Of a stretch of DNA of 64,000 nucleotides, positions 17,504-48,936 are shown piece after piece; within the stretch, counting starts at the first letter, position 1, and each line of letters begins with the position of its first letter. This DNA is from Ureaplasma urealyticum serovar 8 str. ATCC 27618 (lineage in GTDB: Bacteria; Bacillota_I; Bacilli_A; Mycoplasmatales; Mycoplasmoidaceae). The stretch spans positions 798,642 through 862,641 of the forward strand of contig NZ_AAYN02000002.1 in assembly GCF_000169535.1 (NCBI RefSeq), read 5' to 3'. A program made the translations under genes and the position numbers. The notes under the pieces are model-generated. The model was given only the letters and a program-made list of their open reading frames with translations. It was not told the origin of the DNA and searched no databases.

Positions 17504-17543
17504 AAAAAATGACTCCTTTAAAGCAAGGGGGGTCATTTTTTTA
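17504..17543. terminator. Bidirectional terminator between lipoprotein and giant gene 2
   Basis: AAATGACTCC / GGGGTCATTT stem with flanking A-run and T-run, between convergent stops at 17484 (plus) and 17561 (minus). Confidence 0.75.
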
Positions 17544-17560: not shown

Positions 17561-20500
17561 CTATTTTTCTTTACGTTTCTTACGTAATTTTAAACCAATG
17601 ATAATACCACTTATAGAAACAATGATTGCTAATAATGTTGCAACGATTGGTGCTCATATTCGTACACGATCATCACCATATCGTTTAATTTCATTATTTG
17701 TATTAGCTTCTAATTTTGAAGATGGTTCTGGTAAGTTGTAAACTACAAAAACACGTTTGTTTAATGGATTATTACTACGAATAACAAGTTTTGAGTGTGA
17801 ACTATTATTGTATTCAATTGTTGTTTTTGATAAATCAATTGATTTTGGCACGATTTGTTTAAACACAATACTATCTTTAAATTGTTCTACACTTGTTTTT
17901 GTTATGTTTTTTTGTTGTAAACTTTCATTTAAATCACGTAATAAATCAGCTAAACTTGATTGATTTAAATCATATCCATTAAATCCTTGGTAATTTGTTG
18001 AAACAACTTCATGATCTTGTTTGTTTGTTAATAATTTAGCAACTAAAACACGATTTGCTAAATTTGTTGGGTCTTGTTTTTTAATTAAAACATTTCCCGT
18101 TGGTTTATTTGATTGATCTTTTTCAATTTCAACAATTACTGTTTTTGGATTAATAATTTGATTACCTAAACGAATTTTACCTTGATTATTAACATGTGGA
18201 TTTAGTTTTTCATTATTTAAAGCATTTTTAATAGCAGAAACTAAAGCAGCATTATTTTCAATAACATCACGATCGTTAGCAATATGAATATAATTTGATG
18301 AAACAACATTTTTAATTTTTGGAATACTATAAGTACTTGTTGTACCATCATCATTTACTGCTACAACTTGTAAACAATCATTAACAAAAGCAATTTTAGC
18401 TTTATTAAGATTAATATTATTATCTTGTAAATTTTTTAATAAAGTTTGATCTTCTAAATTATTAGCATTAATAAATGTTGCTGGTTTTTCATTTAATTTA
18501 GCAATCGTTTTTTCTAAATCTAGTAGATTTGAATTAATAATTTGTTTACGTTCATCATCACTAGCAACTTTATAAACATTTTTATCAATAACATAAACTT
18601 GTTTACGATCAGCATCGCTAATAATTGAATCATTATCTAATTTTTGTTCTAATGGTAAGTAGTATGGATCACGTAAACGATATTTAATTGCGCCAATTAA
18701 GTAAATATTTTTATTATTTGCATCACGATTATGAGGATTTAGTAATTGACTCATTAATTCATCAACTGGACTATTACTTGTTACTAGTCCACTATTATAT
18801 AATTCATGAGCATAAATAACATTTTTCATCGCTGTGATTACCATTAAAACTTTATTAGTATGATCTTTTGTAAATCCACTAATACTTATATTCTCAAGTA
18901 AAGGATTATAAGTTATTAAGCTACTATCAAAATCTAAATCAATCAATTGATCATTGTCTTTTAGTTTGTTTTTGATTTGTTCGTTTGCTAATAAGAATGT
19001 TAATTTTGTTTGAACAACATTTTTGTTTTCACTAATGTTATGTTTATTCATTAAATCATAAATTAGTTTTGTATCACGATGGTTAATGTCTTGACCATTT
19101 TGTTGGTAATAATGTGGTTTTTTAAAGTTATCATCATCTTGATTAATAGCAACACCTAATTTTTTAATATTTGGTTTTAAAGGATCAAACGTTAGGATTT
19201 TGATTGTACCATCTTCTTCAACTTGTACATCAACATAGTTTGGATTTAATTCTTTACCATCAATTATTACATTACCAACATTATTTGTTTTTAATTGCTT
19301 AATTTGTTGTTTAATTGCTTCTTCAATTGAACCTTTATTTGCAATGACTTCATCATCAGTTGGGAAATGAATAATTGATTCATTTTGGTTAACAACATAT
19401 GGAATTGTAGCAATACCATAAATATTAGGTAAGTTATTTGGTTGGTTTAATGGTAATGATAGCATTCAAATATGATCATTTACATAAACTAATTGTGCAT
19501 CACTTAAATCAATATTTAAACCTTTTAAATAGTTAATTAATTCGTTTGATTTAATTTCATTTTTAGCAAATGATAAAGTTTTTTTAACTTTTAGTAAATC
19601 AAAAAGTTTTTTATAAGGTTTAATTTTATTAAAAATAGTTGTGCCATCTAAATAATCGTTTGCATATTTATTTGGTTCAATAATTGTAATTTCAGATGTT
19701 GTCGCATTAGCATCTTGAATAACATTTTGACTAGCTTTATTAATAGATACTGTAAATGGTGCTTTAACGCTATATTTTCGACCTAACACGAATTCAAGAT
19801 GTTGTTTTGCTAATGCTTTTAGTTTATTGTTTAAGGTGATTGTAACATCATTTGAATTAATTAATACATCTTGTGGTTGATAAATACTAATTGCTTCTAA
19901 TACTTTAGGAACACTATTAATAATTACAACTTTTGATGGATTATGATGATCATTAATGATGAATTGATTATTAATTGGATCATATTTGATACTTGCTTCT
20001 GTATTATTAGTGTCAAAATTATTTTGTTTTAAATAATTTGCTAAATCAGGATTATGATCTAAAACTTGTTTTAATGATTTTTCTTGATCATTATTTGGAT
20101 CAATTGGTTGTGCATCATTAATTGCATTAATTAAATTATTAATATTAGTTTTATCTTGATTTTCATGATTAAAGAATGGACCATCAACTGCATCTTTAAT
20201 AATATATTCATTACTATCTTGATCTTCAACCATTGAAATAATTGGTAAATCTTTTTCGCCAGGTAAACCTTTTTTATAAACTTGGATTGTACCATCTTTT
20301 AAATAACGAACACCAATCTCATCTAATGGATAAGTTTTTTGATCAATTTGGACTGTTTTTGGTTCACCAACTGCTTTAGCTACTAATTGATTATAGTAAG
20401 CAGCACCAACATCACCATTAGTTTTAGCCACTTCATCATCACTTACTTTAGTAAAAGGTGAACGATTTTTATCATTTAAAGCAACTACAGTTGGGATATT

Positions 20501-23500
20501 AACAAAAGCAACAACTCGTTTAGCTTTAGCAAGTTTGTCATAGCCTTCAAGAACATATAAATTTTCATTAATAACTTGAACAGTAACATTATCATAATCA
20601 AAGTTCTTAGCATTAACTAATATGTTTGTTAAAACTTTTGATTTGATTAAACCATGAACATCAGCTAATTGACCAAAACGTTTAAGATTACCTTTTTCAT
20701 TTCCTAAAATCTTTTTAATTCGATATAAATCTTTTAGTGAATCAAAAACATTTTCACCAATAATTGGTACTTGATCATAAATACGACCATCGATTACATA
20801 AACTTTATTTTCATTTTTATCACGAATTAAATAGTTTCTATCACTTAACGTTTGAATATCAATTGGTTCATTTAAATTAAATGATCCCAAACTAATTTGA
20901 TTATTATTACTTAAATTTTTTAGTATGTTTGTAATTGTTTTTGTAATTGAATTAGTGTTTTCGATGACATCAATATTGTTATAAATAACATTAGCATAAA
21001 TTGTTTGTTGAATATTATTAACAATGATATATGAAGGGTTGTTAGAGTCAGCACTCTTAATTGCTAAACGATTCTGATCTTTAATAAAACTAAAGCTTGC
21101 TTGTTCGCCAAAACTTGATGGATAAATCTCAGTGTTGCGAATTGGATTATTTTCATCAACTAGTATACCAAGTTGACTAATAGCATTTCAATCAATGGTT
21201 TGATTGTTATTTTGATTATTAGCAATCTTTTCTAATAAAGCACGTAATTTAGCGACTTCATTAAGATTTCTAAAACCTTTATGAATATTAGCATCATAAA
21301 CTTGATATGATGGAATCTTAGTTTTAACAACAACATTAACACTAACTAATGTTTGAGGATCAATAAAACTAATTGTATTGTCATTATTAACTGCAATATT
21401 AACAATTTGAGGATTAAAAATCTGTTTATTAACAATAATTTGTTGATTTTCATTTTTTAAAGCATTAATAATCGCTCGTTTATAATTACCACCATTATTA
21501 ACAATCACATCAAATTCATTAGGTAATTGTTTACCTGCTTCAAAAGCATCATTTTCATCAACAACGTTTGGTAAATGATTAATAACAGCAATGTTGTGAT
21601 CAGCGTAAACAATTCAGTAATTTTGGTTTGGAACACTAATTAATTGAGGATTATTTTTAAATAATTCATTTGCTTGAGCAAATTTATTAAATTCATCATT
21701 ATTTAATACTTGTTGATCTAAACCATTAGCTAATATTTGTTCTTTATTAAAGTTAGTTTCATTTGCTTTTAATTGTTTTTGTAAATTAGCGAAGGCATTA
21801 ATTTGATTAAATACTGCACTACCATCAATTTTTTGATTTACATATTGATATTGATCTACAATGAAAAGATTTCTCATCTTATCATTTACATCTTTTGTTG
21901 CACTAACATAGTAATTAGTATTGTTTTGTTTATTAACAATAAATTGGTTAGCGATATGGAAGTTTTGGAATTGATTTTGATTATTTAAACTTAAAGCTTT
22001 TAGTTTATTGGTAATTAAAGTTTCAGTACTATCAATATTATCAATTGCTTCATTAACTGTGTATAAACTACGTGCTTCAATAACTTGTGGAATATTATTA
22101 ACAATTAATAAATTACCAAAATTATGATCATTTGTTGGTTGATAAATTGTTAATTTAGCTGTAGCTTTATCATATTTAACAATAGCTTGATCTAAATTAA
22201 TATTTACACCAGCAAAGGCTCGATTAATTAGCTCTTTAATAAATGCAAGTTCTTTAACTTTTGTATAAGCAATACTTTTATTTGTAGCTGTTGTATCATT
22301 ATCTAAAATTGTTTTAGTTACTTTATAAATTTTTAAGTATTCATTTTCGTTTGCATCTTCACTATAAACACTTGGTAATGGATTATTTGATACGATTGTT
22401 AAACGTACATTTTGTGGAGCAACTAAAGTAATTGAACCATCTTTGTTAACAATAGTATTTAAATCTTTAATGTTATATTGTTGATTATTAATTGTAATAT
22501 TGTTTTGTTCATTTTTAAATTTGTTTAAAATTGCTTCTTTAATATTGCCATTGTTATCAATAATATCTGTAATTGATGGGAAAGCATGATTGAATTCTTT
22601 TTCATTAACAACTAATGGTAAATTAGTAATAACAAAAACAGAAGCAGTTGATGTATCGTTTGCAACTAACATTAGTGCTTTAGTATTTTTAATATCAATC
22701 AATTTCACCATTGTTGTATTTGGATCTAATTGATTTGCTTTTAGCATTTTAATTAATTCTTGATTATTTAAAGCTTGGGCGTTAAGTAGTGAATCAGTGG
22801 CTGATAGTGTTGTTATTAATTCTTTTAGTCAAACATAATTATCAAATACTAAACTAGCATCAATACCACGACGATATGTGTGTTGATCAATAATATATAC
22901 ACGACCAAAATCATCTTTAAATAAAGTATTAAAGTTCTTATCTTTACGATCAACATCAATACCTAATGGAATATTTAAATTACCAATACGACGTTTATTA
23001 TCGCTTAAAGCAAGAATTTCATTTAGTTTTTGTTTAATTGTCACTAAAACATCATTTTCATTTTTTGCTACATCTTCAATTGTATATAGATCATGATAAT
23101 TAATTGTTCTAATAGTCTTATTAACTAAAACTAAAGTTGTACTATTAAAGAAATATAAACCTTTATTATTAACATCATTAACAATACTTAAAACTTGATC
23201 TTGAAGATTAAAATCTTTTGGAACAATTGTTTTAAAGGCTTCATCATTCATTAATGATGTTAATGAATTAGTTGTTTGATCATTTAGTTTATTATAGAAT
23301 TCGTTTGCTACTAAAGGATCATTAGCTCAAGCTTGCGGTTGGTTAACAATTTTAAATTGTGGTAATGCACTTAATGGAATAACCATTGTTCCAATTAGTT
23401 TTTGTACATTGTTATTTGTAACAAAAACATTAATTTCTACTGGATCATTAGTATCATTAATTTGAACTTGAATTTGTGAGTTTTCAGTAATACCAAAGTT

Positions 23501-26500
23501 ATTACCATTAATCATAAAGTTATTAGCAATGGCTTGTTTTTTAAAACCTTGAGCAAAAGCCGCTTGTCAACGTTGTTTTTGGTTATTAATATTATTGTCA
23601 ACATTTAATAGATCTTGAACATTAATAACTTTAATGACATTATTTTCATCATCAAGATTTGTATAAATAATATAAGGTAAGTTTTGTAAAATAATAATCT
23701 TTTGAACATTGTTTGTTGTGTAACCACTAATAACAAAAACTAATTGATTATTAACACGAACTTGTTTAATTTTTTGATTTTTAATTAAACCATTAGCATC
23801 TAAAATCATGTTAATTGAATTATTTAATAATTGATTTTGTGAATTAATATCTTTAAATTCACTTGTTGAATGATCTAAGATATTTTTTAAATCATTTTTG
23901 TTAATAAACACATTTTGAGCAGTTGCATCAATTGGTTTAACATAGTTAATTGGATCATATAAATAAATTGGTGCTTTTTTAAATTGATCACCATCAGTAA
24001 TTGTTGATTCAATTTTTAGAACTTGTTTATTGTTTGACAAACTATTACTAATTTGTGTAGGTTCTAAAATTGTATAATCACCAAGTGTTTTTTCACTATT
24101 AACAGCATTAATTGCTTGTCATTTTTGTTCTAAAGTTTTTTTAGTATCACCTAAATTATTAATAACATCATCAATTGTATATAAACCAATTACATATGGA
24201 TTAACAACTTTAGGAACATTTTTAATAATTAAACGGCTATTGTTAATTTGATTATTAATATCTTTATTAGTACCACGAATAATAATTAAATTTCTTGTTA
24301 AATCATATTCAATTGTTGAATTTATTGGATCTAAATCTGCTGGTAAATGTTCTTGAAGATAAAGATCATTTTTTAAATCGCCTAAAAGTTTATGACCTTC
24401 GTCATTTATCTGACAATCATGTTTAATTTTTTGAATTAATTCATAAGAATGTTCATGACTTAAACGAGCACGATTAGTGTTAGCATCAACAACTTTATAA
24501 TAACCAAGAGAAGAAATGGGATTAATTGGTTCTTTTGCGACATGATTTAAATTGTATTTAATAGAACCATTATTGGTGTTATATATTAATTCAACTTGAT
24601 TTGGATCAACTGCTTCATCACGAATTAAAATCTTACCATTACTATCACGTGGTGTACGTTTTTCATCAGCCAACATTTTTGCTAATGCATCATTAACATC
24701 ACCTAAACTATCATAAATAATTTGGTTTTCGTTTGGAATATTTAAACCGCAAGGATCTAAAACTTCTGGTAAATTAGTTATTAAACCATATTTAATTTTG
24801 TTTTGATCATTTTTATCTTTAGCCATGACTAACATTTTTGAACCAAAGATTTGAATTTTAGCATCGCTAATATCTCAGTTAGCATCAGTTAATAATTTAT
24901 TAATTTCTTCATTATTTAATTGGGCTAGGGGCGCTTTTCTTGTACCTACAGCTAAGGCTGAAACACGATATTTTTGTTCATTAATTTTTAGTGTATTATG
25001 ATTATCTTTAGCATTGATTGTATTAGTGAAATAAAGATGTGGATCGTAAATATAAATGAATTGTTGTGGATGGTCTTTTTCATTAAAAACGTAAAAATGT
25101 GGTTGTGTTTTTGTTTGATTTTCAATAGGATCAACAACTTGTTTTCCACCAACTCGTTTATTAACACTTCATTTTGTTTTAAAGATGTTAACTGGATTAA
25201 TTTGTTCATTACTTAAAGTAATTAAATCTAATAAGTTATAAAAACTTGAAGCTTCAAGATATTTTGGCACATCTTTCAAAATTAAATAATTTGCACTTGG
25301 TTTTTTGGCATCAAATAATAAAATACTACCATCAGGACGTAGTTCAACACTAATAGTATTTTTATCAAAATTAGCAATTTCAGTTGGTAATAAGTGTTTT
25401 AGTGTGTAAAGTTGTTCACGAGATTGCGCAATATTGTTAACTTCTAAGAAATTTTTAGCAATTTTTAAAATTGTTTGTAATTCTTGTGGTGGTACTTCAT
25501 GATATGAAACTTGACGCACTGTTTCAATTGGTGTTTTTAAAATAACATAACCAATGATTTGTTTATTATTATCTTTTGTTTTATCTTTAACAATAACATA
25601 ATCTTTAGAATCAGCTAAATCAATTTGGATATTATTCTCATTAATTTTAGCCGTTCCAATAACATATTCATTGTTGCTATTTTTAATTCATTTTGACTTA
25701 AATGCTATGTTATAGTCAAAATTAGCTTTAATGATATCATTAACTGTTGGTGTTTTTAATGAAGCACTATTATCATCAACTACATTAACAAGTTTACATA
25801 CTTTAAAGAAATATGTACGATCTTCTTTAAAGTTAGCTTGATCTTTTTTAGTTGCACTAAACAAGATACAGTTTTCACGTTCATGATTTTCGTGTTCTTC
25901 AATAATGTATTTGAATTTTAAATCTTTATAATCATCAAATTTACCATGATTTTTAATTGCTTCATTAAAAATCTTTTGAACAATTTGTTGTTGTTCACCA
26001 TCTAATGAACTATAGTTAACAAATTTATTTAAACCAACTTTTTTAACTTGATAGAAAGTTTTTGGTGTTAAATCTAAATTATTTCCTAAAGCTTTTTCGT
26101 GGTATTTATTAATACTAATTAAATAAATTGGTTTTGATGAATTTGTTTGCTCATTAACATTATTTTGATAATCAATACGAGCATATAATTCATTAGCATT
26201 AGCGTAATTATAAATAGGATTAATTACATCATAATAACCAATGCGTTTTGTGTTATTTTGACTAACTGCAATGTTATTAATAGTATCTGTTAATACTTTT
26301 TTAATTTCTAGATTAACAGATGGTGAAGTAGCAATATTAGCTGGGATTACAAGAGTTGGATTATCTAAATAACGATTGCAATTAGTAATTACTAAAGCAG
26401 TTGGTGTTTTATCATTATCTTTAATAATTAATTGATCATGATTAGCATCATATTTAATTGTTAAAGCACGTGAATTAGCATCAAAGATTTTTTTGTTATT

Positions 26501-29500
26501 AAACAATAAATCAACTGTTAATTCGTCAAATTGTTTTCTAAAATTAAATACATCACCAAGTTGAACATCTGCTGGTAAATTTGAAAATAATTTTGCGCCT
26601 TTATCATTTGATGTATAATCAATTGCTTTATGAATTTCTTTATATAAGTTAGAAATATAAACAGCATTATTTAAATCATTAAAAGCAATTGTTGTTTTTG
26701 TTTGATTACCTTGTGGTTTAGTATTATTAGCGTCAACATATTTAATTGATACTAAATTTTTTGAACATTTAATAATATCAACTTGATCATTTTGTTTGAT
26801 AACAATTTTATTGTTTTCATAATCAAATTCAAATTGGGCTTGATCTTTATTATAATCACGATTTTCAATTCTAAATGTAGTAGTGTTATTATTAAGCTTT
26901 AGTAAACGCTTAATTAATTCATCTTTTAGATTTGTATGATTTTCAATTAATTCATTTAGACTTGGAATCTCAAGATTAATTGATTTATCTAAAATTTCAT
27001 CTGGTAAATTATTAATTGTTAATAAATGAATTGGTTGATTTTCAATTTTACTTATTAACAATAATTTATCTTTATACTTACGAATTTGTAAATGTGTTTG
27101 GTTAGTATTTTTAAAAGCATAATTAATACTTGTTTGTTGATTTAATCAAGCTTTTAATTGACTAACAGCAAGATCATTATTTTTAAGATTACTAAATTGT
27201 TGAGTAATTGTTAAACTTCATTTTTTAAAAGCATTGGTGTCTTTAAAAATTTCTAAGCCACTAAAATAACCTTGTGAATTAGCATCATTGTTTCTTTCAT
27301 ATGTATAAGCATCTAATACATGAATTGTTTGTGAACCATTTTTAATTTGATAATCATTAATACTATTGTGAACAGTACATTCATTTTGGTATATGTAACC
27401 AGCTAAATTATAGTTATCGTCAAATGATGATCCAATTGTTGTCATTATTTTTTTAGCAATAGCATCACTTAAATTCATGTGATTATCAACCACAAATTCT
27501 GGTTCATACAATTTATTTTTAGCAATCACTCGTTCAAGAGGCGTTTTTAAAATAACCACTGCTAAAGTTTTTAGCGTTTTAGGATCGCGGATTATTAAAA
27601 ATTTACGTGTTTTTTCATCAACACTAAAAATAGCAGTATCTAAATTAAATTTAGCTAAACCAATAGTAATTTCTTTAGTACTTGCATTATAAATTGAATT
27701 ATTTCCACTATAACTTGATCATTTTGTTTTTAAAGCTTTAAACTCATCGCCATCATTAGCAATGATTTCACTTAAAGTAGGAATTGTTAATGTTGTTTCA
27801 TTTGATTCAACAATATTAGGAATATGGTCAATATTATAAATTGCAACCTTATTTAATTCATCATTTTCACTAATAAAACCTTTAACAATAAAACGACCAA
27901 ATTTTGTACCATCAGCATTAGTTACTTCAACATATTTAATTTTAACTTTATCATCTTCAACACTACTTAATTGACCATTAATAATTTTATTACGAACATT
28001 GTTATTAAAATCATTACTATTGTTAATCATTACTAAATCATTATTTTTATCTAAGTCATATTTAAAGCCATTAGTAATGGTATTATCATCATTTTTGGAA
28101 TGTTTAATAGTTTCTAATAATTTTACATAGTCCTCAAATAACTCGGCACCGTCCACATTATTTAAAAAATAACTATAATGATCATATAAACCAATACTAC
28201 GTGTTCGTTTTGTTGTTGAATCATTTGAATTAACTAAATCATCACTTTTAATTTGAATTAAATTGTTTTGTTTTTCAGCTATAGCACGTGGGTTAATTAA
28301 ACTAAATCCACCAATATATTTTTGATTATTTACTTGATCAAAATTATTAATCAATTGATTAATTGTTTTAAGAACATCGCCCTTATTTTCTAATACTTTA
28401 TTAATAAATAGATCTTGGCCTTCATTATTTTTATAAAGTGTTGTTTTATTTTTATCAATTAAATTAGCTGATCAAATTGTATTAGGCATTAAACGAATTA
28501 CTAATGCAGCTGGTTTTTTAGTTGTTGTTCCATAATCAAGTAAGTATAGTAGATGATTATTAGCATCATATCGAATTTGAGCACTAGTTGAATTTTTATC
28601 TAAATTACTTGGATAATTACCAGTTGTTTCATCAAATTCGCGAAATAATTGATAAGCAATATTATTAGCATTAGCATCTGTTGATTTACTTGTTGGGACA
28701 TTAATGTAAGCAACTGGATTACCTTTATTAGGGTTAGCGTTATCATTTGTTAATTTAATAACTTGATTATAAATAACTGAGTTAACATAATTTAAATCTT
28801 TTTCGTAATCTTTATTGTTAATTTTGTTATTTACAGAAGCTGAAGCGTTAATGTATTTAACCTGAGGTATTAGATTTGTTGTTGCTTTAATTTTAACTTT
28901 TTGATTAGTTTTAACGTTTAAAATTTCAAAAATTTGATGATCATAATCAATATTATTAATAACTAAATCACTAATATTATCAGCTACCAAATCAGGATTA
29001 GATGCGGGTCCGAAAGTGATTTTATTAGCGTTATTTGGATCGCGATGTTTTTCATTTAATTGAGCTAAAATATTTTCATTAAATGTTTTTTGTGATTCTG
29101 CTAAATTTTTTAGCTCTGGAATGTTAACATGAACATCAATATCACGATAGTAAAGTGGTAAGTTTTCAACTAAGATGTTATATTCTTGATAATATAAATT
29201 TGTTTTATCTAATAAGTTAGCTGGTGTATCACCAGGTAAATAATTACCAGTTCTAAAATTAATAATTAATTTATTATTGACTTTAGCAATTCTTATATGG
29301 CTTGGATTGCTAATAAGTGATTTATTATTGTTTTCAGTTTTAAATTCTTTATTAACAATAAAATTTTTAATTCTTGTTGCTGTAACACCATTTTGTGGTA
29401 AATCAATATATTTAATTTGTTTTGTTTGTTGATCAATACATTCATTAAGAACGCCTTTGTAAAAATTATTAAAATCAACAATGTCTTCACCAAAAATCTT

Positions 29501-32500: not shown

Positions 32501-32632
32501 TTCAATAATAAAATCAAGTTTTGATTTTGTTTGTTCGCTTTTTGCTAATCCAAAACCAATGGCAACAACAGATGTCGCTACTAATCCAGTGGTTATTGGT
32601 ATTAAATTTTTCTTCTTACTATTTTTTGCCAT
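17561..32632 (-). CDS. Giant repeat surface protein 2 (5023 aa)
   Basis: One uninterrupted code-4 frame of 5024 codons from ATG 32630-32632 to TAG 17561-17563; I read all gaps between TGA codons and found no TAA or TAG. An N-terminal uncleaved-type signal/TM (I-T-T-G-L-V-A-T-S-V-V-A-I) and a C-terminal TM (V-A-T-L-L-A-I-I-V-S-I-S-G-I-I-I-G) with basic tail L-R-K-K-R-K-E-K predict a huge extracellular loop anchored at both ends. The first ~1000 residues are unique; the rest is a degenerate unit of ~350 aa seen 11 times, marked by a Y-V-I-D-x-x-x-Y-type anchor at about 29.53, 28.17, 27.31, 26.11, 25.04, 23.94, 22.88, 21.84, 20.79, 19.67 and 18.59 kb. Between anchors recur N-x-P-x-V-x-x-A and N-x-D-G-T-I phrases. 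No enzyme motif. The start overlaps the end of giant gene 1 by 14 nt, implying translational coupling. Possibly adhesin or motility/surface scaffold (inference). Confidence 0.9.
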
Positions 32633-35600
32633 ATACTATACCCATCTTTCTCACTTTTAGATTTTTGTTCATCTTCTTATTACCTAAGTGTTTATTTTTA
32701 AAGAAATAAATTAATAAACCAACACCGATAATAATGCCAATGATTGCTGCAATTGAAATAACAGCCACTCAAATCATTCAATAATCATTCTTAGCACGAT
32801 AGTGAACTAATTCTTCACGACTAAAACTTGAATTAGTAATTGATTTTGTACTTATTACAACAACGTTTGGATTTTTTGTATCATTATCTTTTATTACAAT
32901 TTGATGACGTTGTGCATCAAATTGAATTGTTGCTAATGGTCCATTTTTAAAATTTTTTGGTAAAACATCGTGAATAATTTGGTTATTTTTTACTAAGTTT
33001 AAAGGTTTAACTTGTTCATCAATACTTTCAAAATTCTTAGCAGTATAAATATCACCAATAATTTCTTGTAAGTATGATGGTCAGAATTGTGAACCATCTA
33101 CTTTTACATAGTTTACTTTAATATCATTTTTACCTAATTTACTTAAGATAATTGCTGCTGGTGGTTTAATTTTTTGATTGTTTTCATCTAATTTAAAAAT
33201 ATTTAGATCCCCATTTTCATCTTTTTCAACCACGATTTTATTTGGATCTAATTGTGCATTTTGAAGTCTGATTAAACCATTTTTATCAATAGGATATTTG
33301 GCTTTATTTTTCAGTAAATTATGCATTGCTAAAGCTTCATCACCATTTGCGTTTAAAACATCATCAATTGATATATAAGGAATTGTTTGTTTTGAAATAA
33401 CGTTTGGTAGTTGATAAAGTTTTTGAACAATATATTTACCATTTGATAAAGTTCCTTTAATAACAAAGAAGTTATCAATTTTAGTAATTACTAAATCAGT
33501 TATTTTTAAATCTTCTTGATTGTTTAGTTTTAAAACATAATCTTTTAATTCATCGTTAATAAATTCTTGTTGTTCGTTCATTAATTTAACATCAATATTT
33601 TTATTTAGACCTAAAGTTTGATCTAATTTTTTAAATGCTAAATAGTCTTTGAAAATGCTTGTTGCTTTAGCTTTTTTTATATAGAAAATATCATCAATAA
33701 TTACAATTTGATGATTGTTTTGATCACTAATAATTTTGTATTTAGCTTGTTGTGTTTTATTGACTAAAGCATGATGATTTTCATAATAATTATTAACTAA
33801 AACAGGATTGTTTACTAAATAATCACCTATTTGGTTAGCATTAGCTAATTTTTGGTTAATAGTTAAATTAATTGCGTCATCAATTAGAGTTTGATCATTA
33901 TTATTTACTAAAATATCAAATGTACTATAAAGTTCACTAGCACGAATTACTTTAATTACATTATTAACAACAATTGTTTGTGCTCGTTTTTCACGATCAG
34001 TATTCATACCTCTAAAAATTAGTTTGTCAAGGTTAGGATTATATTCAACTGTTCAATTTTTAAAATCAGTTACAATGTTAGCAGGGTTGTTAATTGCTTC
34101 ATAAACACTAATAATATTTTTAATAATTCATGGGTGATTTATTAAACGTTGTTTTTCACTTTGATATAAATCATTCATATTTTTTTGATGCGGTAATGCT
34201 TGAATTAAAGCACGTGTTTGTTTGATTAATTCATATAAAGCCTTAGCTTCTACAGCATCATTTAATTCAGCATTTATAACTGTATAATTTGGTTGTGCCC
34301 GCGTTGGACTAATTGATAATAGTAAATTAGCATTATTTTTATCAATTAAATCAATTGTGCCATCATCACGAACAATAACTTTAATTTGATCTGGATCAAT
34401 TAGTAAACCATTAACATTAATTTTATTATTAGGATCTCGCGGGTATTGTTTTGGATCTTTTAAGATCTTAGCAATAGTTTGAGCATAATTACCTTGGTTA
34501 TTTAAAACATCAGCTTCACTTGGTAAGTGTAAATTAATGTCTTTTTCACTAAGGACTCGTGGAACATTATTAATAATTGATACATAATTAACTTGATCTT
34601 GTTCATATCGTAAAACTAAATTAGGACCAGAAGTTGAATTTAAATATTTAGGATTATTAGATGTAATTAAACCATCATCTTGTTTTAATTCATCTAATCA
34701 TTTAGTTAACTCTGGTGTTTTTTGTTCAATCTCTACAGTAATTTCTAATTTTTGGTTAGCTTTTATAATGTTATTAAATAGTTTTTTAAAGCTTAAATTA
34801 TCATTAAAGATTTCAAAACCTTTTGTTTTACTAAAGTGATAATATGTATCATCAATAATAATATATTGTTGATTATTAGCGGTTGTTAATTGTAAGTAAC
34901 GACGTGATTTTGGTGCTTGTGTGCTAACTGCAAAAACATCATGATTTAAATCGTTAATATAAGTTAAATCATTTTGTTCTAAAACTTGATTGTTTTTTAG
35001 TTTAATAACAAAATTGTGAACTGGTTTTAAAAAGTTCATTTTTAATAAGTTTTTAGCAATCGCTTTAGTGATAATTTCATCAGCACTAATTTTTTGTTCA
35101 CTAAAATCTTGTGCCACACTGATTGTATAACCAGAAGCAATTGTATTTGGTGTATATAGTGTGTAATCATTATCTGTTGCTAATAAAACACGATCAATAT
35201 TTTTGATTACTAAAATCTTATTATCCTTATGATTATTGTTATCAATAATTAAACGATTATTAGCAATATCATAACGTATTTTTGTTGTTGTAGTATTGTA
35301 TCAATTTGGTTCGAAAACAGCATCTAATTTTGGTTTTAAGAAACTATTTTGTTTCATTTCTTTAGTTAAATTAATAAAACTATTAACGTTTGCTGGTAAT
35401 TTATTAATCATTTTTACTAATTCATAAATTGCCATTGGGTCACGTTCTAAATGATATTTTTTATCTTTATTATCAATAAATAAACGTTGTGGATATGAAG
35501 GATTGTTCGCAATAATTGTTGCTAGTGTTTTAGGTGGTTGACTATCTTTTTGATTAATAGAAATTGTGCCATCATTATTTTGAACAATATCTACTTCAAA

Positions 35601-38600
35601 TGGATTAAATAAAACACCATCCACTTCAATTTGATTTGAACTATTTCTAACAAATTTATTTTCATCTTGGAAGTTTAATAAGATTAATTCATTAATTGGT
35701 TTATCAAAGTTAACAATGTCTTCTTTTGAAGGTAATTTAGCTTTTGATTGATCAATTAATTTAGGTAAGCTAATTAAAACATCTTTAATAACTTGTTTTT
35801 GATCATTTAAAGCTTGCACAATTAAAACTTGGTGATAAATTTTTAAACGTACATTGCTTAAATCTTGTTCATTAATTGCTTGTTGAACAATTTGCTTTAA
35901 TTCGCTATATTCTAAATTACTTGCGTTAAAGTAATCATCATTAATTGTTTTTAGTTGATCATATAATGCTACTAAATTAGTTAATCTTGGATTTTGAGTA
36001 GCTAGATATTGTGTTTTATCTATAATAAATAATTTTTGTTGATTACGTTTTAGTAATGAATTATTGTAACTAATATATCAAGTATTAGGGGCATTAGCAT
36101 AAGCTTGCTCGCCTGCTTCAATATTAGCTAAATTATCATATCCTGTAATTGTTTGATATTGATTTGCAATTTGATTACCAATAAAGTAAGAACTTACATT
36201 ATTACTACTTGAAATAATTTCTTTAACTTTATTTTTTACTAAAGCTGTAATATCATTATTAAAATCAGCAGCTTTAAAGTAGTATTCATCTTTATTATAT
36301 AAATCATAAGCATCAATAATTCGTGGAGCATTTTTAATAATTACAATTCGTGGATTTGAAGTGTTAGTTTGTAAATTATCACGAATAATAATTGTGTTAT
36401 TAATACGATTATAACTAATTGTAGCTTTGCTTAAATCTCAATCATTACCTACTAAATTTTTAACTTTTAAATTATAGTTATCAATAATTTTCTTTAATAA
36501 AACATTATTTTTAATGACATCAGTTAAGGGTCGTTGTACACCTAGAATTGGTTGTTGATTATCAATAGCATCATATAATTCTTTAGCTAATAAAATATTA
36601 GTGAATCTAAAATCTAATGCATCATCATTTGGTTGATCACTATAAATATCAACATCATATTCACCATAAATCTTCGTTGTATTTGAAGCTGGAATTGAAA
36701 CTTGTTGATCATTTGCATCAACAATAGTAATTGTTCCATCGGTTAAGACATCAACCTTTTTAATTCCTATTTGTAATTTTATACCTCCAAAATCAATCAT
36801 TGGTGGTTGACCAAATGGTGGGAAACGAATTGGATCATTGATTTTTTGTTGAATTAAGGTTGCTTGGTCTCCACCATTGCTAATAATTTCATCATCACTT
36901 GGTAATAATGCCAACACTGATTTATCAGGAATAATTGGTAATCCATTAATTAAATAGATACATTCAACATACTCACTAACATTTGTTGTTTGATTATTAT
37001 TAACAACATGACGTTCAATAAGTTTTTTACCAACTAAAACAAAAACTAACTTATTATCATGTTTAGATTTAATAATTTGTGGTTCAATTAATTGATGTTC
37101 TTGGGCAAATTGGTTAATAATTTTATTATTATAATCACTTATGTTCTTAAACTCGCTAGTACTTAAAGCATCACGCAATTTAACAAAATCATTTAAATTT
37201 TGAGTGAACTTTTGTTGGGCATTAATTGGTGTTATTTCATATTGTCTTTGATCAATGACATAAACTTTAGTTTGATCATTTGAACTAAATTCATATGTGA
37301 AAGCATCTTGATAAGTGTTTGATAAATCATTAATTGCACTATTAGCGCTTACTTTATAATGATGTAAACTATCACTTAACATTTTTGTTTGATCTTTAAA
37401 ATCTTTTTGTAAATTATTAAAATATGAAACTAATGCTTGATATGGGTTTTTAGAATTAATTAATTCACTATCAGCTTTAATATAACCTTGTGCACTATCG
37501 TACATTAAATTAGCATTAACAACTTGATATACATTTATAAAAATAGCTGTTGTATTTTTTGAACGTAAAATGATTTCATTTTTGTTTTGGTTATATTCAA
37601 TTGAACGATTTGGTTCATTACTTATATTACTAATTTGATTTGAAGCTAAGGCTTTAGCAATAAAATCAATACTAAATAAGTTATTTTGAGCATCTGTTTG
37701 ATTTGCTAAATTAATTCAATTAATTTGTTTTTGATGAGGATAATTTGTATCAATTGCTGAATTTTTAGTAATGTTTTCTAAAACATTATATGTTTGTAAA
37801 GGTGTAGCATTAATTGAAGTTCAATCAATAACTTTAACATTTGGTGTATCATTTCTTAAAACTAATGTTGCAATAACTTGATTATCTTTAACTAATTCCA
37901 CAATTTTCTTATTTGCATCAGTTGGATTAGGTTTTGTTTGATAAGTAATTTTAGGATCATCTAAGTTAATAATTTGATCTGCAATTTTTAATTGCTTATT
38001 AGTGCTATTTGCAGCAAGAATTTTTTGTTTTGTAGCATTAGCAATCTTTTCATCTAAACTTTGACCATCAGCGTTAGTTACATCTTCTAAACTTAAATCA
38101 AAATCAACTTTTTTAATTGCTGGTAAACTTAAAATAACTACTTTTAATTTTTTAGTTTTTCAATCAATACCAATAATACCTAATCGTTCATTATCATTTC
38201 CTAAAACAATTTGTTGGGCTTGATTTTGATCAAATTCTAAATTTTGGATTAAATTATTAAAATCAACACAATCTAAATTTAAAGCATCTAATTGTGTGCC
38301 AATTGGTGCTTGTTGTAGTTTTAGAATTGTTTTATTATAGAAATCAACTAAATTACTAAATGCGAATGATTTAGCATCATAATGAGTATAAATCGTTTCA
38401 TCAATGAAATATAAGTCTTGTGAAGTTGCTGCATTATCGTGTAATAAATAAACACCATCTGTTTGTAAATTAGCAGGTGTGAAGTTTTTTGTATACTCAT
38501 AACCATTAACACTAATTTTTTGTGGTTGTAAACGGTTTAATTTATTAGTAATAACATTAGCTAAATTACCATTAGCATTCACAACATCACTAATTGTATA

Positions 38601-41600
38601 TAATACGTTGTTAGTTGCATTATCAGCGGTAGCAGCTTTTAGAATATTACCAAAAATAACTAAGAAGTGTTTATCATCATTTAAGATTAGAATTCGTTTA
38701 TTTGTTTTATCAAAAACTACACGACTAGATGATAAGATAGCATCATCTTTAAATCATGCTTGTAATTTTTGATCAATGCTTGTACTTGAAATTAATGATT
38801 TAATTAATTGATCTGTTTTTAATGTAGTTAAATTAGTTACTTGTTGATTTTTAATTAGTTCATTATAAGTTTTTTCAAAATGAGCAGTATCTAAGGCTTG
38901 ATGATTAATTCTTACACTATCATAACCATAAATTTCAGGGACAATCGCATTAGGAATTAAAGTAATTGTTTTTTGAGCACTTGTAATTGAATATGAATAA
39001 TCTTTATTTGTTGGATTAGCTATATTCGCATTAGGACGATTAACAACAATTGAAACACTATTTGCATCAAAATCAGTATGCATAATTTTATTATTAGTAT
39101 CTTTTAATAAGTCCTTTAGTACACCAGCCATAATATCATTTGGTGAATATAAAGCATCTTGATCAATGTTTTGCGTTGCTGTTAGTTGTTGAACAGTTGG
39201 TGCTAATACATCATTATCTGATGCTGGGTTATAAACTGTAGGGAAACTATTAATAACAATAACATGTGTTTGTCGATTTGTTAAATTAGTTCCATAAACC
39301 ACTAATTTTGTATTTTTAGCATTTGTTTGATCAACAATTTTTTTAATTTGTGCTGTTGCTAAATCAATATTACCATAGTTAGCATTAAAGACTTTTTGCT
39401 TTAATTCTTTTGGTAAATCATTAGCATTAATAGTGCTAAATGTATCAGTAATTGTTTTTTGATATTTATCAAAATCAACAACATTGCTAATTTCAACACT
39501 TGCATCTATTTTTTCAATTCCTAAATGATAAATCATTTTATCAATAACACTAACTTGTGGTTTTGATGAATTAGTAGGCGAAGAAATTAAACTATTATTA
39601 TTTAAACCAACATTAATAACTTTAACTGCTTGTTCTTGACTTTTTGCATATTCGATTGTTAAATCGCCTCATTGAATTGTTTGATTGTATTTTGAAGCAT
39701 CATTTAATTTATTTTTTAAATAGTTTTGAACACGTACATCTGCTTTAACAATATCATCAATACTATATACATCTGTTGCTTTTAGTGTTCGTGGCACATT
39801 ATAAATAATAATTGAATGTTTATTGTTTGTATTCTCAATAACAATTTTGTTTTGATCAACTAAATATTTAATTGTTAAATGTGTTAAATCATTAAAAAAT
39901 GATTGAGGAATTAGAGGATTGTTAACAATAAAAGTAGCTTGTTTCATTGCTTCAGTCATTGCCATTGGTGTTGCTTTTGATGTAATTAGTTGTGTGAATG
40001 CAAAAACTTGATCAACATCACTTCCTAAAGCATTTACTACTAGAATACTATTGCTTTCTAATTTCTGATCAACAATTAAATTAATTGTTTGTCTTGTTGA
40101 TAAATCAGTAAGTGTTAATGAATTATCATCATTAAATTTAATTACCATTTTATTAATATTTAATGAATAAGATTGATTATTTGCTTTTGAGACTATTGTA
40201 ATTTTTTGTTCATTAACTGGGTAATTGTTTGTATCTTTAAAACAAGCTTCATAAGCATTTAAAACTGATTTGTTATGAGCAATTATTTTAACAATTTCAT
40301 CAAAACTTGGAATCTTAGTTGTTTCATTATCAGTAGTGTTTGTTAGATCAATAACAATTGGTAATTTTGTAGCTACTAATAATTTATTACCATCTTTAAA
40401 CAACATGTTATTATTATGAACTTCTACAGTTGTTGTAGTAATGTTCATGCCATTACCATAAGTGTTAACAACACTATTTAATTCTTGATTGTTTAAATTA
40501 CTTAATAAAATACCACTATTTTGTTTAATTTGATTAAACGCTTTTTGATATTCTTTAATATTAACAATTTCATCTTCTAAATTAATCGCGTAAGGAATTG
40601 GATCAATCGCATCTAAAATAGTAATTGGTTGGAAAACATGATTACCATCTTCTAGATAATATTTAGCATTATTTTGATTAATTGTTGAATTTTTGCTATA
40701 AGTAAAATCGCCTAATTTAGCAGTAATTTGTTGGCCATTAATACTATTAATTGTTTTTGTTAAATAAGCACGTGATGGATCATTATGTTCAACAATAGCA
40801 GAGATTAACTCATCTTCACTAACTGTAATTTCAACATTATTTTTAACAACACGACGAATATTAGTAATAACTAATGCGTGGGTTAGTTGGTTTTGAGCAT
40901 CAAAAACACGAATAATAATTCGATCATTATCACTATGTTTTGATGGTTCTAAATAATATTCAACACTTACGTGATTTAAATCTGCAAAAAGATTATTATT
41001 ATCACCGTAAACTGCTTTAATTTTTTCTTTAATAATCTTATTATTTAAAAATTCATTATTAATTTGTTTTTGAGGATGAAGATTATTAACTAAAGTATTA
41101 TCTTTTGATTTGTCAACTTCGCTGTCAGTATTTAATTTTTTAAATGCGCTAATTAATTCATAAATTTCTTCATCACTTGCATTATTAGCATTAACAATTT
41201 TAAATTCTGGAATATTGCTAAAAGTTTTTTCATCAAAATACTTTTGAGCAGTTTTATCTTCAATTTTAATTTTTAAATTAGCACGATCAATAATTACATT
41301 AGCATTATTTCAATCAATAACTCGATCATAAATCATAATTGTTTGATTTGTTTTTGATGGTGTTTCATCTAATTCATTCTTAATAGCTTCTTCAAGACGT
41401 TTTTGTTCATTACCTTTATATTTAATAAAATCATAAACAGTTGGAATTTTTAGTTTTGAAGGTTCAGTAATTTTTGGTAAATTATAGATGAAGTAAACAT
41501 GATAGTTTTGCGCACTATCATTAGCAGTTAATAATAAAACATTTTTGTTATCGTAACTATCAACTAATAATTTAACACTGTTTTTTTCTAAATGATAATT

Positions 41601-44600
41601 ATTAATTAATGTATCTAATTCGCTATTTTGTGCTAAATTTGCATAAGTAGTTAAATCTTTAGTTTTTTTAACTTCTTCAAATAGTTTTTTAAAAGCACTT
41701 ACATCATTAAAGTTATGTTGAGCATTAATTTGTTCGCTTGTGGCTAAATGATATTTTGTTTGATCAATTAAAACTAAACGCTTAATTGGATTACTTGCAT
41801 AAGCAATTACATAATAATTTTCAATATTATTAAAACTAATTTCTCCACTTAGTGTGAAATCATTAATTTGTTTTGTTGATAATGAAATGTTTTGTAAATA
41901 ATTACTAATTAAAGTTTTTGGTGATAAATCATTTGTTGTTAATGATTTTGTTGCTAAAAATTGGTTTTTAGCAAGATCTTTGTCCATAACAATTTCAGTA
42001 AAATCTGGAATATTGGTAATCGCATAACCTTTATTGTTAATTGAGTCAATTAATCAAATATTTTGTTTTGCCTCATCATATCAAATTTTGTCAAAAATTT
42101 TATTATTTGGAGTTATTAAATTAATTCCATCAATGCTATTATAATCAATAATTGCTTTATTATTAATTGTCGTTTTAGAGGCATTTTTAATAGCTGTAAT
42201 TAAAGTACGTACTTTTTCAATATTTACTTTATTATCTAATTTAATAAAAGTATCAAGGTTTGATGAATCAAGAATAGCTATTTTTTGGGGATTTTCAATT
42301 AACAAATCTAATGATTTTGCATCACTAATGTGAATGTTAGTAATTAATTCATGATTGTTTTTTGTTAAATCAAAATGCATTGTATTTGGATCAAATTTAA
42401 TTTGTCCTAATTTAATCAATCCATTTACAGTTGGTTTAGCATCTAAAATTGCTTTCTTTATTAATTGATTTTGAATAACAGTACTAAATGTTGGTTGTTG
42501 ATTAGCAAAATCAATTGCATCATAAACATTTAATCATGTTATTTGTTCGTTTAAATCAGTACTAAAGTTTGGTGCACCTACAAAAATAAGATAAACTTTT
42601 GTGTTTGGTTTAGTTTTATCAATTGTTTCTAAAACAATTTTTGAACCAACTTTAAAGACTTTTTTAGCTTCTAAATTAATTTCAACAGCTTTACTAATAA
42701 TTTTTTGAATATCTACATTATTATTGTATAAACTAACATCTTCACGTTGTTCAAACTCTTTTAAACTATGTTCACCTAAAATTAATTTTTTGTATTCTAA
42801 TACATTACTAAATAAGTTTTCACTATTGATTTTATACTCTTCAAGGTTAACAATATGAATATGATGGTTGGCAAAATTAATTGTATGATTATCTAATGAA
42901 TAAGTAATTGGTGTATTTGGTTGATAAGTTAAACCAAATAATTTATTTTCAACAATTAAATTATCTAAATGATTTTCAATTTGATTATTAATTGCTTTAT
43001 TTAAATCACCATTATTTGGAGATTGTAAAACATTAATTTCTGTTAATAATGAATTAGGTTTTGTTTCAAAAATATCATGATTTGATATTACTTTTGGAAT
43101 GTTATAAATTAAAGCAATTTTTGAATTTTGTTTATCATTAATATTTTCATAAACAATAATTTTGCCTTCGTCTTTAATGAATTCTACACCACTATTTGAA
43201 CTTAGTTGGAAATTAAATGCTTTAAATTTTAAATCGTTTTGGTTTTGAGTATCAATCAATTGTTTTAATAATTTTGTTTTTATAGTATTATCAACATTTG
43301 CATTATTTAATTTTGTTCAATACTCTCAAGTTAAATAATAATCATTACTGCTTGAATAACTTGTTCCAATAACGTTTGGAATTTGTTGATTTGCAAAAAT
43401 TATTAACGAACCAAATGATGTTTTTGTGCCACGATATAGTTTAATATAATTACGATTTTGCTCATCAATTTCAAATTTTAAATTATTAGGATTTAATGAA
43501 AGACTATTATCTTGATTTGTATTGTATAAATAAGGTAAATCATAAGCACCATCTTTAACTATAGCTTTTAGTTTTAAATCTAATGCTTTTTCATAATTAC
43601 CATCACTAGCAATAATTTCAGTTTTTGTTGGTAATGTAAATTTTAGTTTTTCATCATTTTCATTAATAATATTAGGAAGATTGTATAAATTTAAAATACT
43701 AAATTCGCCAGGATTATTATTAATATCAAAAGCATTTACTTCAGGATTTCGTCAACCAGCAATTACTAATTGTTTTTGATTATTTTTTTCACATAAGAAG
43801 ACTTTAACTTTTTTTCATTGCGGATTGCTAATTCCTGTTGGAACATTTAAAAAGAAACCAAAACCACCTTGTTCAATTGAATTAGTTAAAGGTTGAACAA
43901 AATTTGGAGCAATTGTTTGAACTTGCGCTAAATCTAATCCTTGTTCATAACTATTTTTATTATTTAAAGCTTCATATAAAGCTTTTCATTGATTAAATGA
44001 AACATTAGAACCATATAATTCATAAGCTTTTTTAGAATCTAAATAATTTGATTCATCATAAATTTTAATTTTGTTTTCTGGATTAGCTTGATCAACAATT
44101 TCATAAACAAAAGTCTTATAACGACGTGTTGTATTATTTGGTCCTTGATCTAATTTTGGCGCTGATAAAGCTTTAATTACATATTTTTTTTGATCTTTAG
44201 CAATCGTGTAATTCCCTAGTATTAAATTACCTGATTGTTGAGCATTAATGATGCTCTCAATAAACGCTTGATTATTAAAATCATTTGGTTTAGATGGAGT
44301 TGTGCCATAAGTTTGCATTACTACATCTGTTAAATTATTTTTTGTATTATTAAAATTAATATTTTTTAAAGATCAGAACATTTCAACAACTGTTGTAATT
44401 TTTGGCACATTAGTAAAAATAACAGCTTGTTGAGTTGTATAATCACGAATAATGATAAAATCTTGATCATATTTATATTCGATCGTTCCTGATTTAATAT
44501 TACCTACATTTTCTTTAATTAATTGATCATTCAATAATTCGTTTGTTAAAACTTTACGTCCTTGATGTGTTGGGTCATTAACTAATTGTTCATAACGTTT

Positions 44601-47015
44601 ATAAAATGAGAATGAATCACGATCACTTTTGTTTCAACGCACTTTTTTAATTGTGGGAATTAAACCATTAGGATTAGTAATATCGTTTGTATCAACTTTA
44701 ATTTGTTCAATAATTTTTTGGTCTTGATTACGTATTAAATTAATTAATTTATTGCTTTGTTCTAAATTAAAATCAAATTTTACGCCATTATTGTCTTTTG
44801 TACTTAAAGTGTATTCATTTCCATCGACTACAATTTTTGTAACATCACTTGAAGATCGTTTAACATTATCATTTAGAATTTTAATGAATAATTCTTTATC
44901 TGATTTATTGTCTTGATTAACAAGCATTTGATCTACTAATTTATCTAATGAAGCTACATTATCATAATTATTAAATGTCTCTGTCGTACTTAAAACATGA
45001 GGAAGATTATAAATAATTAAAAATTTTGTTAAATCATTTTCATGATTTGTATTAATAATGACAAAAAAAGTTGTTTTTTGTTGTTGATGATTTATTGTAT
45101 AACGAATAATTTTTGAATCATTTTTTGAAAATAAAGGATTTGGATATTTTTGATCTAAATAATTATTTAAATCAACTAAACCAATATTTGAAATTGTTAA
45201 ATATGTTGCAACAACTTTATTTTCATTTTTAACATAGTTTAGTTTGTCTTTAAAAATTAGACCATTTCCATTAACGCTTTCATAAGTGTTAGCATAAAGA
45301 ATATAATAAGATTTTGTTTGATTATCTTTTGTATAGTTAATCTTTAAATATTTATATTTTGAATCTTGTGGTAATAAGTTTTGATTTTGTTCTACACTAT
45401 TATCAATACTTGGAATTCCTTCAACACTAATAGATCCGATTTTACCACCACTTGCTAACTTTAAATTTTCTAATAAAGCATGTTTGAAAATCTCTAACAT
45501 TTGTACATCGTGTTTTTTAAAGTCATGTACTTGTGATATGAATGATTGTAAAATTTGTTGAATATCTAATAAAGGTTTGTTGTTAATGTTTTTTGATTGG
45601 TTATTAATAACATTTGATACTTTTAAAACATTAGGTAAATTAACAAGCATAACTGCTTTTCGTGCACCATTTGTATCATCACGAATAATAATACGATTAT
45701 GTTCTGGTTCATAGTAAATTTTTGATAAGTTATTATTAAAACCCTTATCAACTATATATTTAGAAAATAAGCTATTATTTAAAACTGATGTTAAAATAAT
45801 CGCATTTTTAGCACCGGATTCATTATTATTAGTTAAAACATTAATTAAATTAACAAATTCTAATAAATTATATTTAAAAGGATATTTTGAATCTACTTGG
45901 TTAATACCACGATCTAAACGTTCGTATGAATAACCTTCATTTCCTTTTGTTATATAAATTAAGTGATGTGTATCACTAATGCCAATAGAATTATCTTTTA
46001 AAATGGCAATGTTTTTTTCAGCATTATCTAAAACCAATTGGCGATTTAATTTTCCATTAAAAACAAAATCATGTTGTGAATTACCATTAAATGATTTTAA
46101 TTTTTTAATAATGGCTTGTTTGTAATCAAAATTTTCATTAACTACTTCATCAAAACTTGGTAGTTCATTTTTAACATCATCAAAACCATAAACAACAGGC
46201 ATTCCAGGATTTGGATCTTCAGTATTTTGTGGATTTGGGTTGCCTGTAATCGTATATACAACATGTTGATTATTAGCATTTGTTCCTACTACAACTAATT
46301 GGATCTTACTATTAATTTTATCGTTGGGATTTAGAATAATTTTAGCAACAGCAATATTAGTTAATAATGTAGGTGATGAAGATGTAATAAACGCTTTAAT
46401 TTTCTGAAATGTATTATCGTTAATTTTGACAAAAGCATTTTCTTTTAGTAGATTTAAATATTTACCATAATCAATAACGCTTGTAATTTGTTTTTGACCA
46501 TTTGGTAAAAGATCCATTAAAGCATCACCAATACTTAAAGGATTTTTATAATATCCAGCCTTATCAACAATTTTAATTGTTTCATTAGTGTTTTTATTTT
46601 CAATATAAACAGCACCATCAGCACCAATTGGTTCTTGTTTAACTTGTCAATCAGTTTGATTTAAATTTTTTTGTATTTGTGTGTTATTTTCACTAACACT
46701 AATTGTTAATGAACGCTCTAAGGCTTTTTGAACTGCAACTTTTAAATCATAGTTAGCATGAATTAATTCAAAAATGGTAAAAAACGTATTTGTTGGTAAT
46801 GAACCATCATCATTAATAGCAGCTGAGTCAAATTCATAAATATAGTTTTTAGCAGTTGATAAATTTGTCGTGTTATTTAAAGTACTTACATAATCATGTG
46901 AGTGATCAATTCCTAATTTTGTACCAACTCCAATAGCAATAACAGCTGTTGATATAATTCCAATTGAAGCAATTTTCGGAACTTGATGTTTATCAATTTT
47001 TTTGTTCTTTTTCAT
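32619..47015 (-). CDS. Giant repeat surface protein 1 (4798 aa)
   Basis: A single 4799-codon code-4 frame from ATG 47013-47015 to TAG 32619-32621; all inter-TGA gaps were read and are open. The N-terminus is basic (K-K-N-K-K) then hydrophobic (I-A-S-I-G-I-I-S-T-A-V-I-A-I-G-V-G), the C-terminus has a TM (V-A-V-I-S-I-A-A-I-I-G-I-I-I-G-V-G-L-L-I) and a Lys-rich cytoplasmic tail. The extracellular body is about 12 degenerate units of ~390 aa, marked by the V-I-D-x-x-x-Y anchor near 46.55, 45.29, 44.05, 42.84, 41.76, 40.64, 39.54, 38.40, 37.25, 36.02, 34.84 and 33.68 kb. Repeats start right after the signal, unlike giant protein 2. It is a paralog of protein 2 and the first gene of the two-gene operon; no -10 box is obvious upstream. 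Few cysteines; no catalytic motif. The TTG at 47025-47027 could also start the frame. Confidence 0.9.
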
Positions 47016-47316
47016 AATCTTTCCCAAATCTCCCTATTTCTAATCTTTATGTACATACATAATTACACACAAGGGATGTTTAAATTTTACTTTAAAGTTT
47101 GTGTAAAAAAACATTTTATTTTGTGTAGAATTATTTATTTGAAGACCAAACTAAAAAAGATTGATATTGAAAATATTCTTTCAATGAAAAATTAAGGGAT
47201 TTTATTTCTTTGTGTTATAATTTTTAAATAAAAATTGGAACAATTATGAAAAGAGGGACTATTAAGATTACACCCTCTTTTTTAAAGATAAAAAATTATT
47301 TAGTAAGGTTTACTTA
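47016..47316. promoter_or_regulatory. Divergent spacer: giant operon and permease leader
   Basis: On the plus strand a TATAAT at 47216-47221 fits the permease promoter. It is followed by a mini-ORF (47246-47317) and a hairpin. On the minus strand GGGAAAG lies just before the giant gene 1 ATG, while no convincing -10 box for that operon is visible. Nothing else is seen. Confidence 0.5.
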
Positions 47317-48906: not shown

Positions 48907-48936
48907 TATTTAATTAATGGAGTATAATACAATATT

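What the first reader, a model, noticed from the sequence alone, without database searches (positions are those of the whole stretch)
17561..47015. Two adjacent giant ORFs (4798 and 5023 aa) with a 14-nt overlap
Two code-4 frames without any TAA/TAG run back to back and occupy about 46% of the window. Each has an N-terminal hydrophobic signal and a C-terminal TM with basic tail, so each is a >500 kDa surface loop. A reduced genome keeping ~9800 codons open in an AT-rich sequence, where TAA and TAG are expected often, means strong selection. Giant hypothetical membrane proteins are known in Ureaplasma, so novelty lies in the operon, paralogy and repeat plan.
Basis: partly seen in the sequence, partly recalled or inferred. 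Interest (0 to 1): 0.85.

Follow-up and report, generated by a model that had tools for sequence, protein, structure and literature searches.

The report
Paired giant modular Ureaplasma surface proteins
Two back-to-back genes each encode a roughly 550-kDa membrane-anchored protein of an already named, functionally unstudied Ureaplasma family (GUMAP), and each turns out to be a chain of about 24 small folded modules whose number and order have not changed between species even though the sequence has drifted to about 30% identity.

Summary
A (47015-32619, minus, 4798 aa) and B (32632-17561, minus, 5023 aa) are open in code 4, overlap by 14 nt, and each has an N-terminal hydrophobic segment and a C-terminal TM with basic tail. 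The genome is a Ureaplasma, most likely U. urealyticum (inference). The family is already named: NCBIfam NF033897 'GUMAP protein' matches the last ~733 aa of both proteins at ~990 bits, cut-off 200, and a U. urealyticum GUMAP gene is a clinical PCR target (PMC12135515). I found no published function. Added here: each protein is a chain of ~190-aa modules of two alternating homologous types, 24 in A and about 24 in B. The repeat unit folds confidently in AlphaFold2 (pLDDT 87) with no confident PDB match. U. canigenitalium and U. diversum carry the same adjacent pair, module for module; a profile found it in no other sampled genome. Best reading: two extended surface fibres made from one operon, likely adhesive, spacing or shielding; that function is inferred. 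Interesting architecture, known family.

The parts
32619..47015 (-). Gene A, 4798 aa, ~546 kDa giant GUMAP-family protein
17561..32632 (-). Gene B, 5023 aa, ~573 kDa giant GUMAP-family protein; start overlaps end of A by 14 nt
46908..46982 (-). A N-terminal hydrophobic segment (about residues 12-36), signal or anchor
32691..32789 (-). A C-terminal TM segment (residues ~4743-4775), followed by basic tail
32543..32608 (-). B N-terminal hydrophobic segment (about residues 9-30)
17579..17668 (-). B C-terminal TM segment (residues ~4989-5018), followed by basic tail
32808..46808 (-). A module array: one D2-like module (70-254) then 23 alternating D1/D2 modules (254-4712), ~190 aa each
17618..29887 (-). 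B module array: about 22 alternating D1/D2 modules (916-5005), one of them short (1599-1685)
29888..32284 (-). B N-terminal diverged region (residues 117-915): D1-like module at ~117-300, then diverged or enlarged module-like sequence
29942..30016 (-). Most conserved 25-residue run of B (873-897, VLTGLETIQYYPDFSKIVISDNGYY), 19/25 identical to U. canigenitalium
33393..34586 (-). D1-D2 repeat unit modelled by AlphaFold2 (A residues 4144-4541)
32679..34877 (-). GUMAP_C (NF033897) match in A
17564..19702 (-). GUMAP_C (NF033897) match in B
47016..47316 (.). Divergent intergenic region to the amino-acid permease gene; likely holds the promoter of A-B (promoter-like matches no more than chance)
17507..17542 (.). 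Hairpin with A/T runs on both sides, likely bidirectional terminator shared by B and the convergent lipoprotein gene

Best explanation
A and B are a two-gene operon of GUMAP-family giant proteins of Ureaplasma. Each is exported, anchored in the membrane by a C-terminal TM segment, and extends outward as a long chain of about 24 independently folding ~190-aa modules in strict alternation of two types. Most likely they work as a pair of extended surface fibres that bind host or neighbouring surfaces and/or hold the environment at a set distance from the wall-less membrane. B's divergent N-terminal region, with its highly conserved patch, would be the membrane-distal working end if the signal segment is cleaved. 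Shown by computation: frames, pairing, modules, frozen module order, membrane segments, confident fold of one unit. Inferred: export, extended shape, co-transcription, adhesion or spacing function.
For: NF033897 GUMAP_C at 988-991 bits in both. N-terminal hydrophobic segment and C-terminal TM with basic tail. Cysteine nearly absent: 14 in 9821 residues here and 0 in 10,282 in U. canigenitalium, as is usual for exported mollicute proteins (general knowledge). Iterative HMM tiles both proteins end to end; A-only and B-only profiles find each other; 0 hits in 40 shuffled and 4 reversed sequences. D1 and D2 are homologous (hhalign E 4.7e-7). AlphaFold2 of a D1-D2 unit: pLDDT 87, pTM 0.81. Pair adjacent in three species with spacing -14, +8, +11 nt. 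Every A unit has its same-numbered U. canigenitalium unit as best match (12/12; all 10 complete B units too), and the unit tree agrees. Terminator-like hairpin after B; no promoter-like match on the coding strand around the A-B junction.
Against: No expression, localisation or binding data. No known adhesin or ligand-binding domain in Pfam and no confident structural relative. B's N-terminal region did not fold in AlphaFold2 with three sequences (pLDDT 38). Only three sampled Ureaplasma species have it, and two well-covered genus members lack it, so it is not essential to the genus. One weak terminator-like hairpin lies just inside B on the coding strand.
Confidence: 0.5

Rival explanations
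1. Each protein is a double-anchored loop (N-terminal segment not cleaved) that forms a dense coat, mainly a shield or decoy against host antibodies and complement, with no specific receptor.
For: Sequence drifts faster than the neighbouring genes (34-40% identity to U. diversum against 42-82% for neighbours), while length and module count stay fixed. N-terminal segments lack a lipobox.
Against: No phase-variation or antigenic-variation features: no tandem DNA repeats beyond about 2 short copies, no long homopolymers or SSRs in the genes or promoter region, no gain or loss of complete units. A pure decoy would not need fixed module order.
Confidence: 0.25
2. The pair works like the giant leg proteins of gliding mycoplasmas (Gli349/Gli521 of Mycoplasma mobile): long surface rods coupled to a motor.
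For: Similar size range, pairing of two adjacent giant genes, modular body, membrane anchor (comparison from general knowledge, not tested against those sequences).
Against: Profile finds nothing in 320 genomes of the order outside Ureaplasma. Neighbours are a permease, ribosomal proteins and a lipoprotein, with no motor genes. Ureaplasma is not known to glide (general knowledge).
Confidence: 0.05
3. The proteins bind or process immunoglobulin, as in the MIB-MIP systems of mycoplasmas.
For: Human ureaplasmas are reported to have IgA protease activity (PMC3511179); surface-exposed giant chains could capture antibody.
Against: No Pfam or NCBIfam match to such proteins; no recognisable protease gene next to A-B.
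Confidence: 0.05
4. Internal or membrane-tethered structural scaffold (cell shape, division) rather than a host-facing protein.
For: Fixed length and module order fit a ruler or scaffold; terminal TM would also anchor a cytoplasmic body.
Against: N-terminal hydrophobic segment followed by the body, basic C-terminal tail after the TM (positive-inside) and low cysteine favour an outside body; absent from other Ureaplasma genomes, so not a general cell-shape part.
Confidence: 0.08

Closest known systems
GUMAP protein (NCBIfam NF033897, GUMAP_C), including UUR10_0680 of U. urealyticum ATCC 33699
   Same: Family model matches the C-terminal ends of both proteins over its full length at about five times its cut-off; named as a U. 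urealyticum gene in PMC12135515.
   Different: The model covers only the last ~733 aa (about 4 modules). The module plan, the pair and the frozen order are not in any text I could read. Which of A or B is UUR10_0680 was not determined.
Mycoplasma mobile gliding proteins Gli349 / Gli521
   Same: Adjacent giant surface proteins with repeated modules (recalled, not tested).
   Different: No sequence link found in the order; no motor gene neighbours; Ureaplasma not known to glide.
Ureaplasma multiple-banded antigen (MBA)
   Same: Repeat-bearing Ureaplasma surface protein.
   Different: MBA has short, near-identical, variable tandem repeats that recombine (PMC3511179); here modules are ~190 aa, mostly 15-25% alike, and fixed in number and order.

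Membership tests
GUMAP (NCBIfam NF033897) | Score above the curated cut-off of 200 bits | tested here: met
   990.6 bits (A), 987.7 bits (B), full model 1-733
GUMAP (NCBIfam NF033897) | Domain sits at the C-terminal end, with the membrane segment | tested here: met
   A 32679-34877 and B 17564-19702, reaching the C-termini
GUMAP (NCBIfam NF033897) | Confined to Ureaplasma | tested here: met
   No match in 14 control genomes; unit profile only in Ureaplasma apart from chance-level matches
Gli349/Gli521 gliding proteins | Sequence or fold homology to the gliding proteins | tested here: inconclusive
   Profile finds nothing in 320 genomes of the order, but whether M. mobile is among them is unknown and the sequences were not at hand
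Gli349/Gli521 gliding proteins | Neighbouring gliding genes and motor | tested here: not met
   Neighbours are permease, SecE/NusG, ribosomal proteins, lipoprotein
Multiple-banded antigen | Short variable tandem repeats | tested here: not met
   Only four roughly 2-copy DNA repeats in 30 kb; module order fixed
MIB-MIP immunoglobulin system | Recognisable MIB or protease domain | tested here: inconclusive
   No Pfam/NCBIfam match in A or B; a missing match does not exclude a distant relation

The most novel reading that the evidence does not exclude
The modules have a fold not yet seen in solved structures, and each position in the 24-module chain has its own fixed role, so that the two proteins form a position-specific, two-chain surface structure that arose by expansion to 12 double modules and then tandem duplication of the whole gene before the Ureaplasma species split.
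Probability: 0.3. Interest if true: 0.65.

Novelty: already known. Interest (0 to 1): 0.42.

Why it matters
A reduced human-associated bacterium spends 3.3% of its genome on one gene pair of unknown function. Showing that both proteins are fixed chains of foldable ~190-aa modules turns an intractable 10,000-residue problem into one of expressing and solving a 400-residue unit. It also separates this family from the variable, phase-switching surface antigens of Ureaplasma: its sequence diverges fast while its plan does not.

Tried and rejected
Pfam on all parts of both proteins: only sub-threshold matches. PDB by sequence with unit and B N-terminal profiles: nothing convincing (xylanase at E 0.03 rejected as chance). 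Fold search of the unit: best Foldseek E 0.01 with low TM (glyoxalase/dioxygenase rows); VIA-align best Z 3.9 over 67 residues, in a band where unrelated folds occur; C. difficile surface proteins (SlpA, Cwp2, Cwp8) appear at Z 3.1-3.5 but are tied with glyoxalases, so not used. Viral structures: nothing. AlphaFold2 of B 35-930 with three orthologs failed (pLDDT 38). A three-module alignment misregistered and was dropped in favour of single D1-D2 units. Viral contigs hold no relative. Marginal profile matches (E 2e-4 to 1e-3) in five class-level genomes, some with stops in frame, are treated as chance over ~400 genomes. I considered that UU046 of U. parvum, shared with M. hominis, was this gene; the paper gives no length in the passage and nothing ties it to A or B, so it was dropped. 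Whether U. parvum has the pair could not be tested: no U. parvum record could be recognised in the searches.

Full report
Observation. A runs 47015-32619 on the minus strand (4798 aa, 26 TGA read as Trp) and B runs 32632-17561 (5023 aa, 29 TGA). They overlap by 14 nt and neither has an internal TAA or TAG. With B's base composition a codon is TAA/TAG with probability 0.075, and the other five frames of B carry 139-715 stops. Predicted masses are 546 and 573 kDa. Hydropathy gives one N-terminal hydrophobic stretch and one strong C-terminal TM segment followed by a basic tail in each, and nothing comparably hydrophobic between.

Organism. The window lies at 798642-862641 of an 873,729-base contig in an 881,828-base assembly. 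Relatives named by the genome scan are Ureaplasma diversum NCTC 246 and U. canigenitalium ATCC 51252. The genome's own thymidine kinase is about 90% identical to the closest solved one, PDB 2b8t (I counted about 23 differences in 223; that 2b8t is a Ureaplasma enzyme is from memory). With the genome size this makes U. urealyticum most likely (0.84-0.95 Mbp in PMC3511179); that is an inference.

Known family. NCBIfam NF033897, 'GUMAP protein' (GUMAP_C, 733 positions), matches the C-terminal ends of A and B at 990.6 and 987.7 bits against a cut-off of 200, and also the A proteins of U. canigenitalium and U. diversum. PMC12135515 states that the U. [quoted passage not shown] urealyticum type strains. 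I found no paper in the held library on its function or repeat plan. Pfam has no model for it.

Repeat plan. An HMM seeded with one stretch of A and iterated on the four full-length proteins tiles A with 12 consecutive units of ~365 aa (218-4736) and B with units from 741 to 5005. The last unit of each is cut at about the same place, next to the TM. A profile from A rows alone recovers the B units and the reverse; 40 shuffled and 4 reversed sequences give no hit even at E 10. Because the rows were collected with the shared profile, the cross test is not fully independent, but the controls and the end-to-end tiling are clear. Each unit splits at two hydrophobic 'NLPxV' strands into two ~190-aa modules, D1 and D2, which are themselves homologous (hhalign E 4.7e-7). 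A then reads as D2, (D1 D2)x11, D1, i.e. 24 modules, the first one by hhalign (E 3.9e-9). B has about 22 clear modules from residue 916, a further D1-like module at about 117-300 (E 3.5e-5), and diverged or enlarged sequence between; reversed controls gave nothing. B's most conserved run, residues 873-897 (19 of 25 identical to U. canigenitalium), lies in that enlarged region.

Frozen order. U. canigenitalium has the same pair, 4993 and 5289 aa, 11 nt apart, aligned end to end at 28% identity. In U. diversum the pair is spread over contigs (C77, C78, C10, C54, C55) that cover A and most of B collinearly at 34-40%, with A and B 8 nt apart; contig C77 ends in an in-frame TAG in its very last codon, which I take for a contig-edge effect. 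In a tree of units every A unit pairs with its same-numbered U. canigenitalium unit, as do all complete B units placed in it; a direct score matrix gives 12 of 12 and 10 of 10. So the arrays were complete before these species split, and no complete unit has been gained, lost or swapped since. Between A and B the same-number units are slightly more alike than other pairings (permutation p 0.0037, about 0.05 after allowing for 13 offsets): suggestive of tandem duplication of a whole 12-unit gene, not proof.

Distribution and context. A profile of the D1-D2 unit finds the family in 3 of 320 genomes of the order, all Ureaplasma, and otherwise only chance-level matches in about 400 class and 400 phylum genomes. 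Seven other genomes of the genus lack it, two of them over 90% complete. In four of them (G002, G006, G008, G009) the permease-SecE-NusG neighbourhood that flanks A here was read through and is present with ordinary genes, not giant ones, upstream of the permease. U. diversum shares the location permease | A B | ribosomal S9 region; U. canigenitalium has the pair elsewhere in its genome. The pair diverges faster than its neighbours (34-40% against 42-82% to U. diversum).

Structure. AlphaFold2 of A 4144-4541 with 35 aligned units gives pLDDT 87 and pTM 0.81, a mixed alpha/beta fold. No PDB chain matches with Foldseek E <= 0.001, and the best VIA-align Z is 3.9 over 67 residues; this is compatible with a new fold but does not prove one. 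B 35-930 could not be modelled.

How it likely works. The open 9800 codons, preserved pairing, export and anchor segments, near absence of cysteine, folded modules and fixed order point to two long surface chains made together. A promoter is expected in 47016-47316 (matches no better than chance); around the A-B junction the coding strand shows no promoter-like match and one weak terminator-like hairpin inside the start of B, and a bidirectional terminator-like hairpin follows B at 17507-17542. Adhesion, spacing or shielding are the plausible roles; I rate an extended adhesive or spacing fibre at about one half. No step beyond the anatomy has been shown experimentally.

Verdict. A real and striking feature, but a named family in a known organism. 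What is added is the module plan, its conservation, and a foldable unit that makes the function testable.

Noticed in passing
window 15910-17484 (+): Lipoprotein (524 aa) convergent with B belongs to a Ureaplasma paralog family: 9 matching places in this genome and matches in five other genomes of the genus; no Pfam family.
   Followed up: partly
window 1040-4932 (-): Three consecutive lipoproteins share a similar to near-identical N-terminal segment but have different bodies (338, 425, 408 aa), like a variable lipoprotein cassette.
   Followed up: no
L013/L104 (U. canigenitalium G001:C1, just downstream of B1, start at 317925): A further long surface ORF (about 2,400 aa) with proline-rich ends lies directly after B1; no similarity to B found, nor of its first part to A.
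   Followed up: partly
L102 / G004:C77 end: U. diversum A is broken across contigs; contig C77 ends with an in-frame TAG in its final codon, probably a contig-edge effect.
   Followed up: partly
window 50427: A run of 16 T between genes downstream of nusG, the longest homopolymer in 48000-64000.
   Followed up: no
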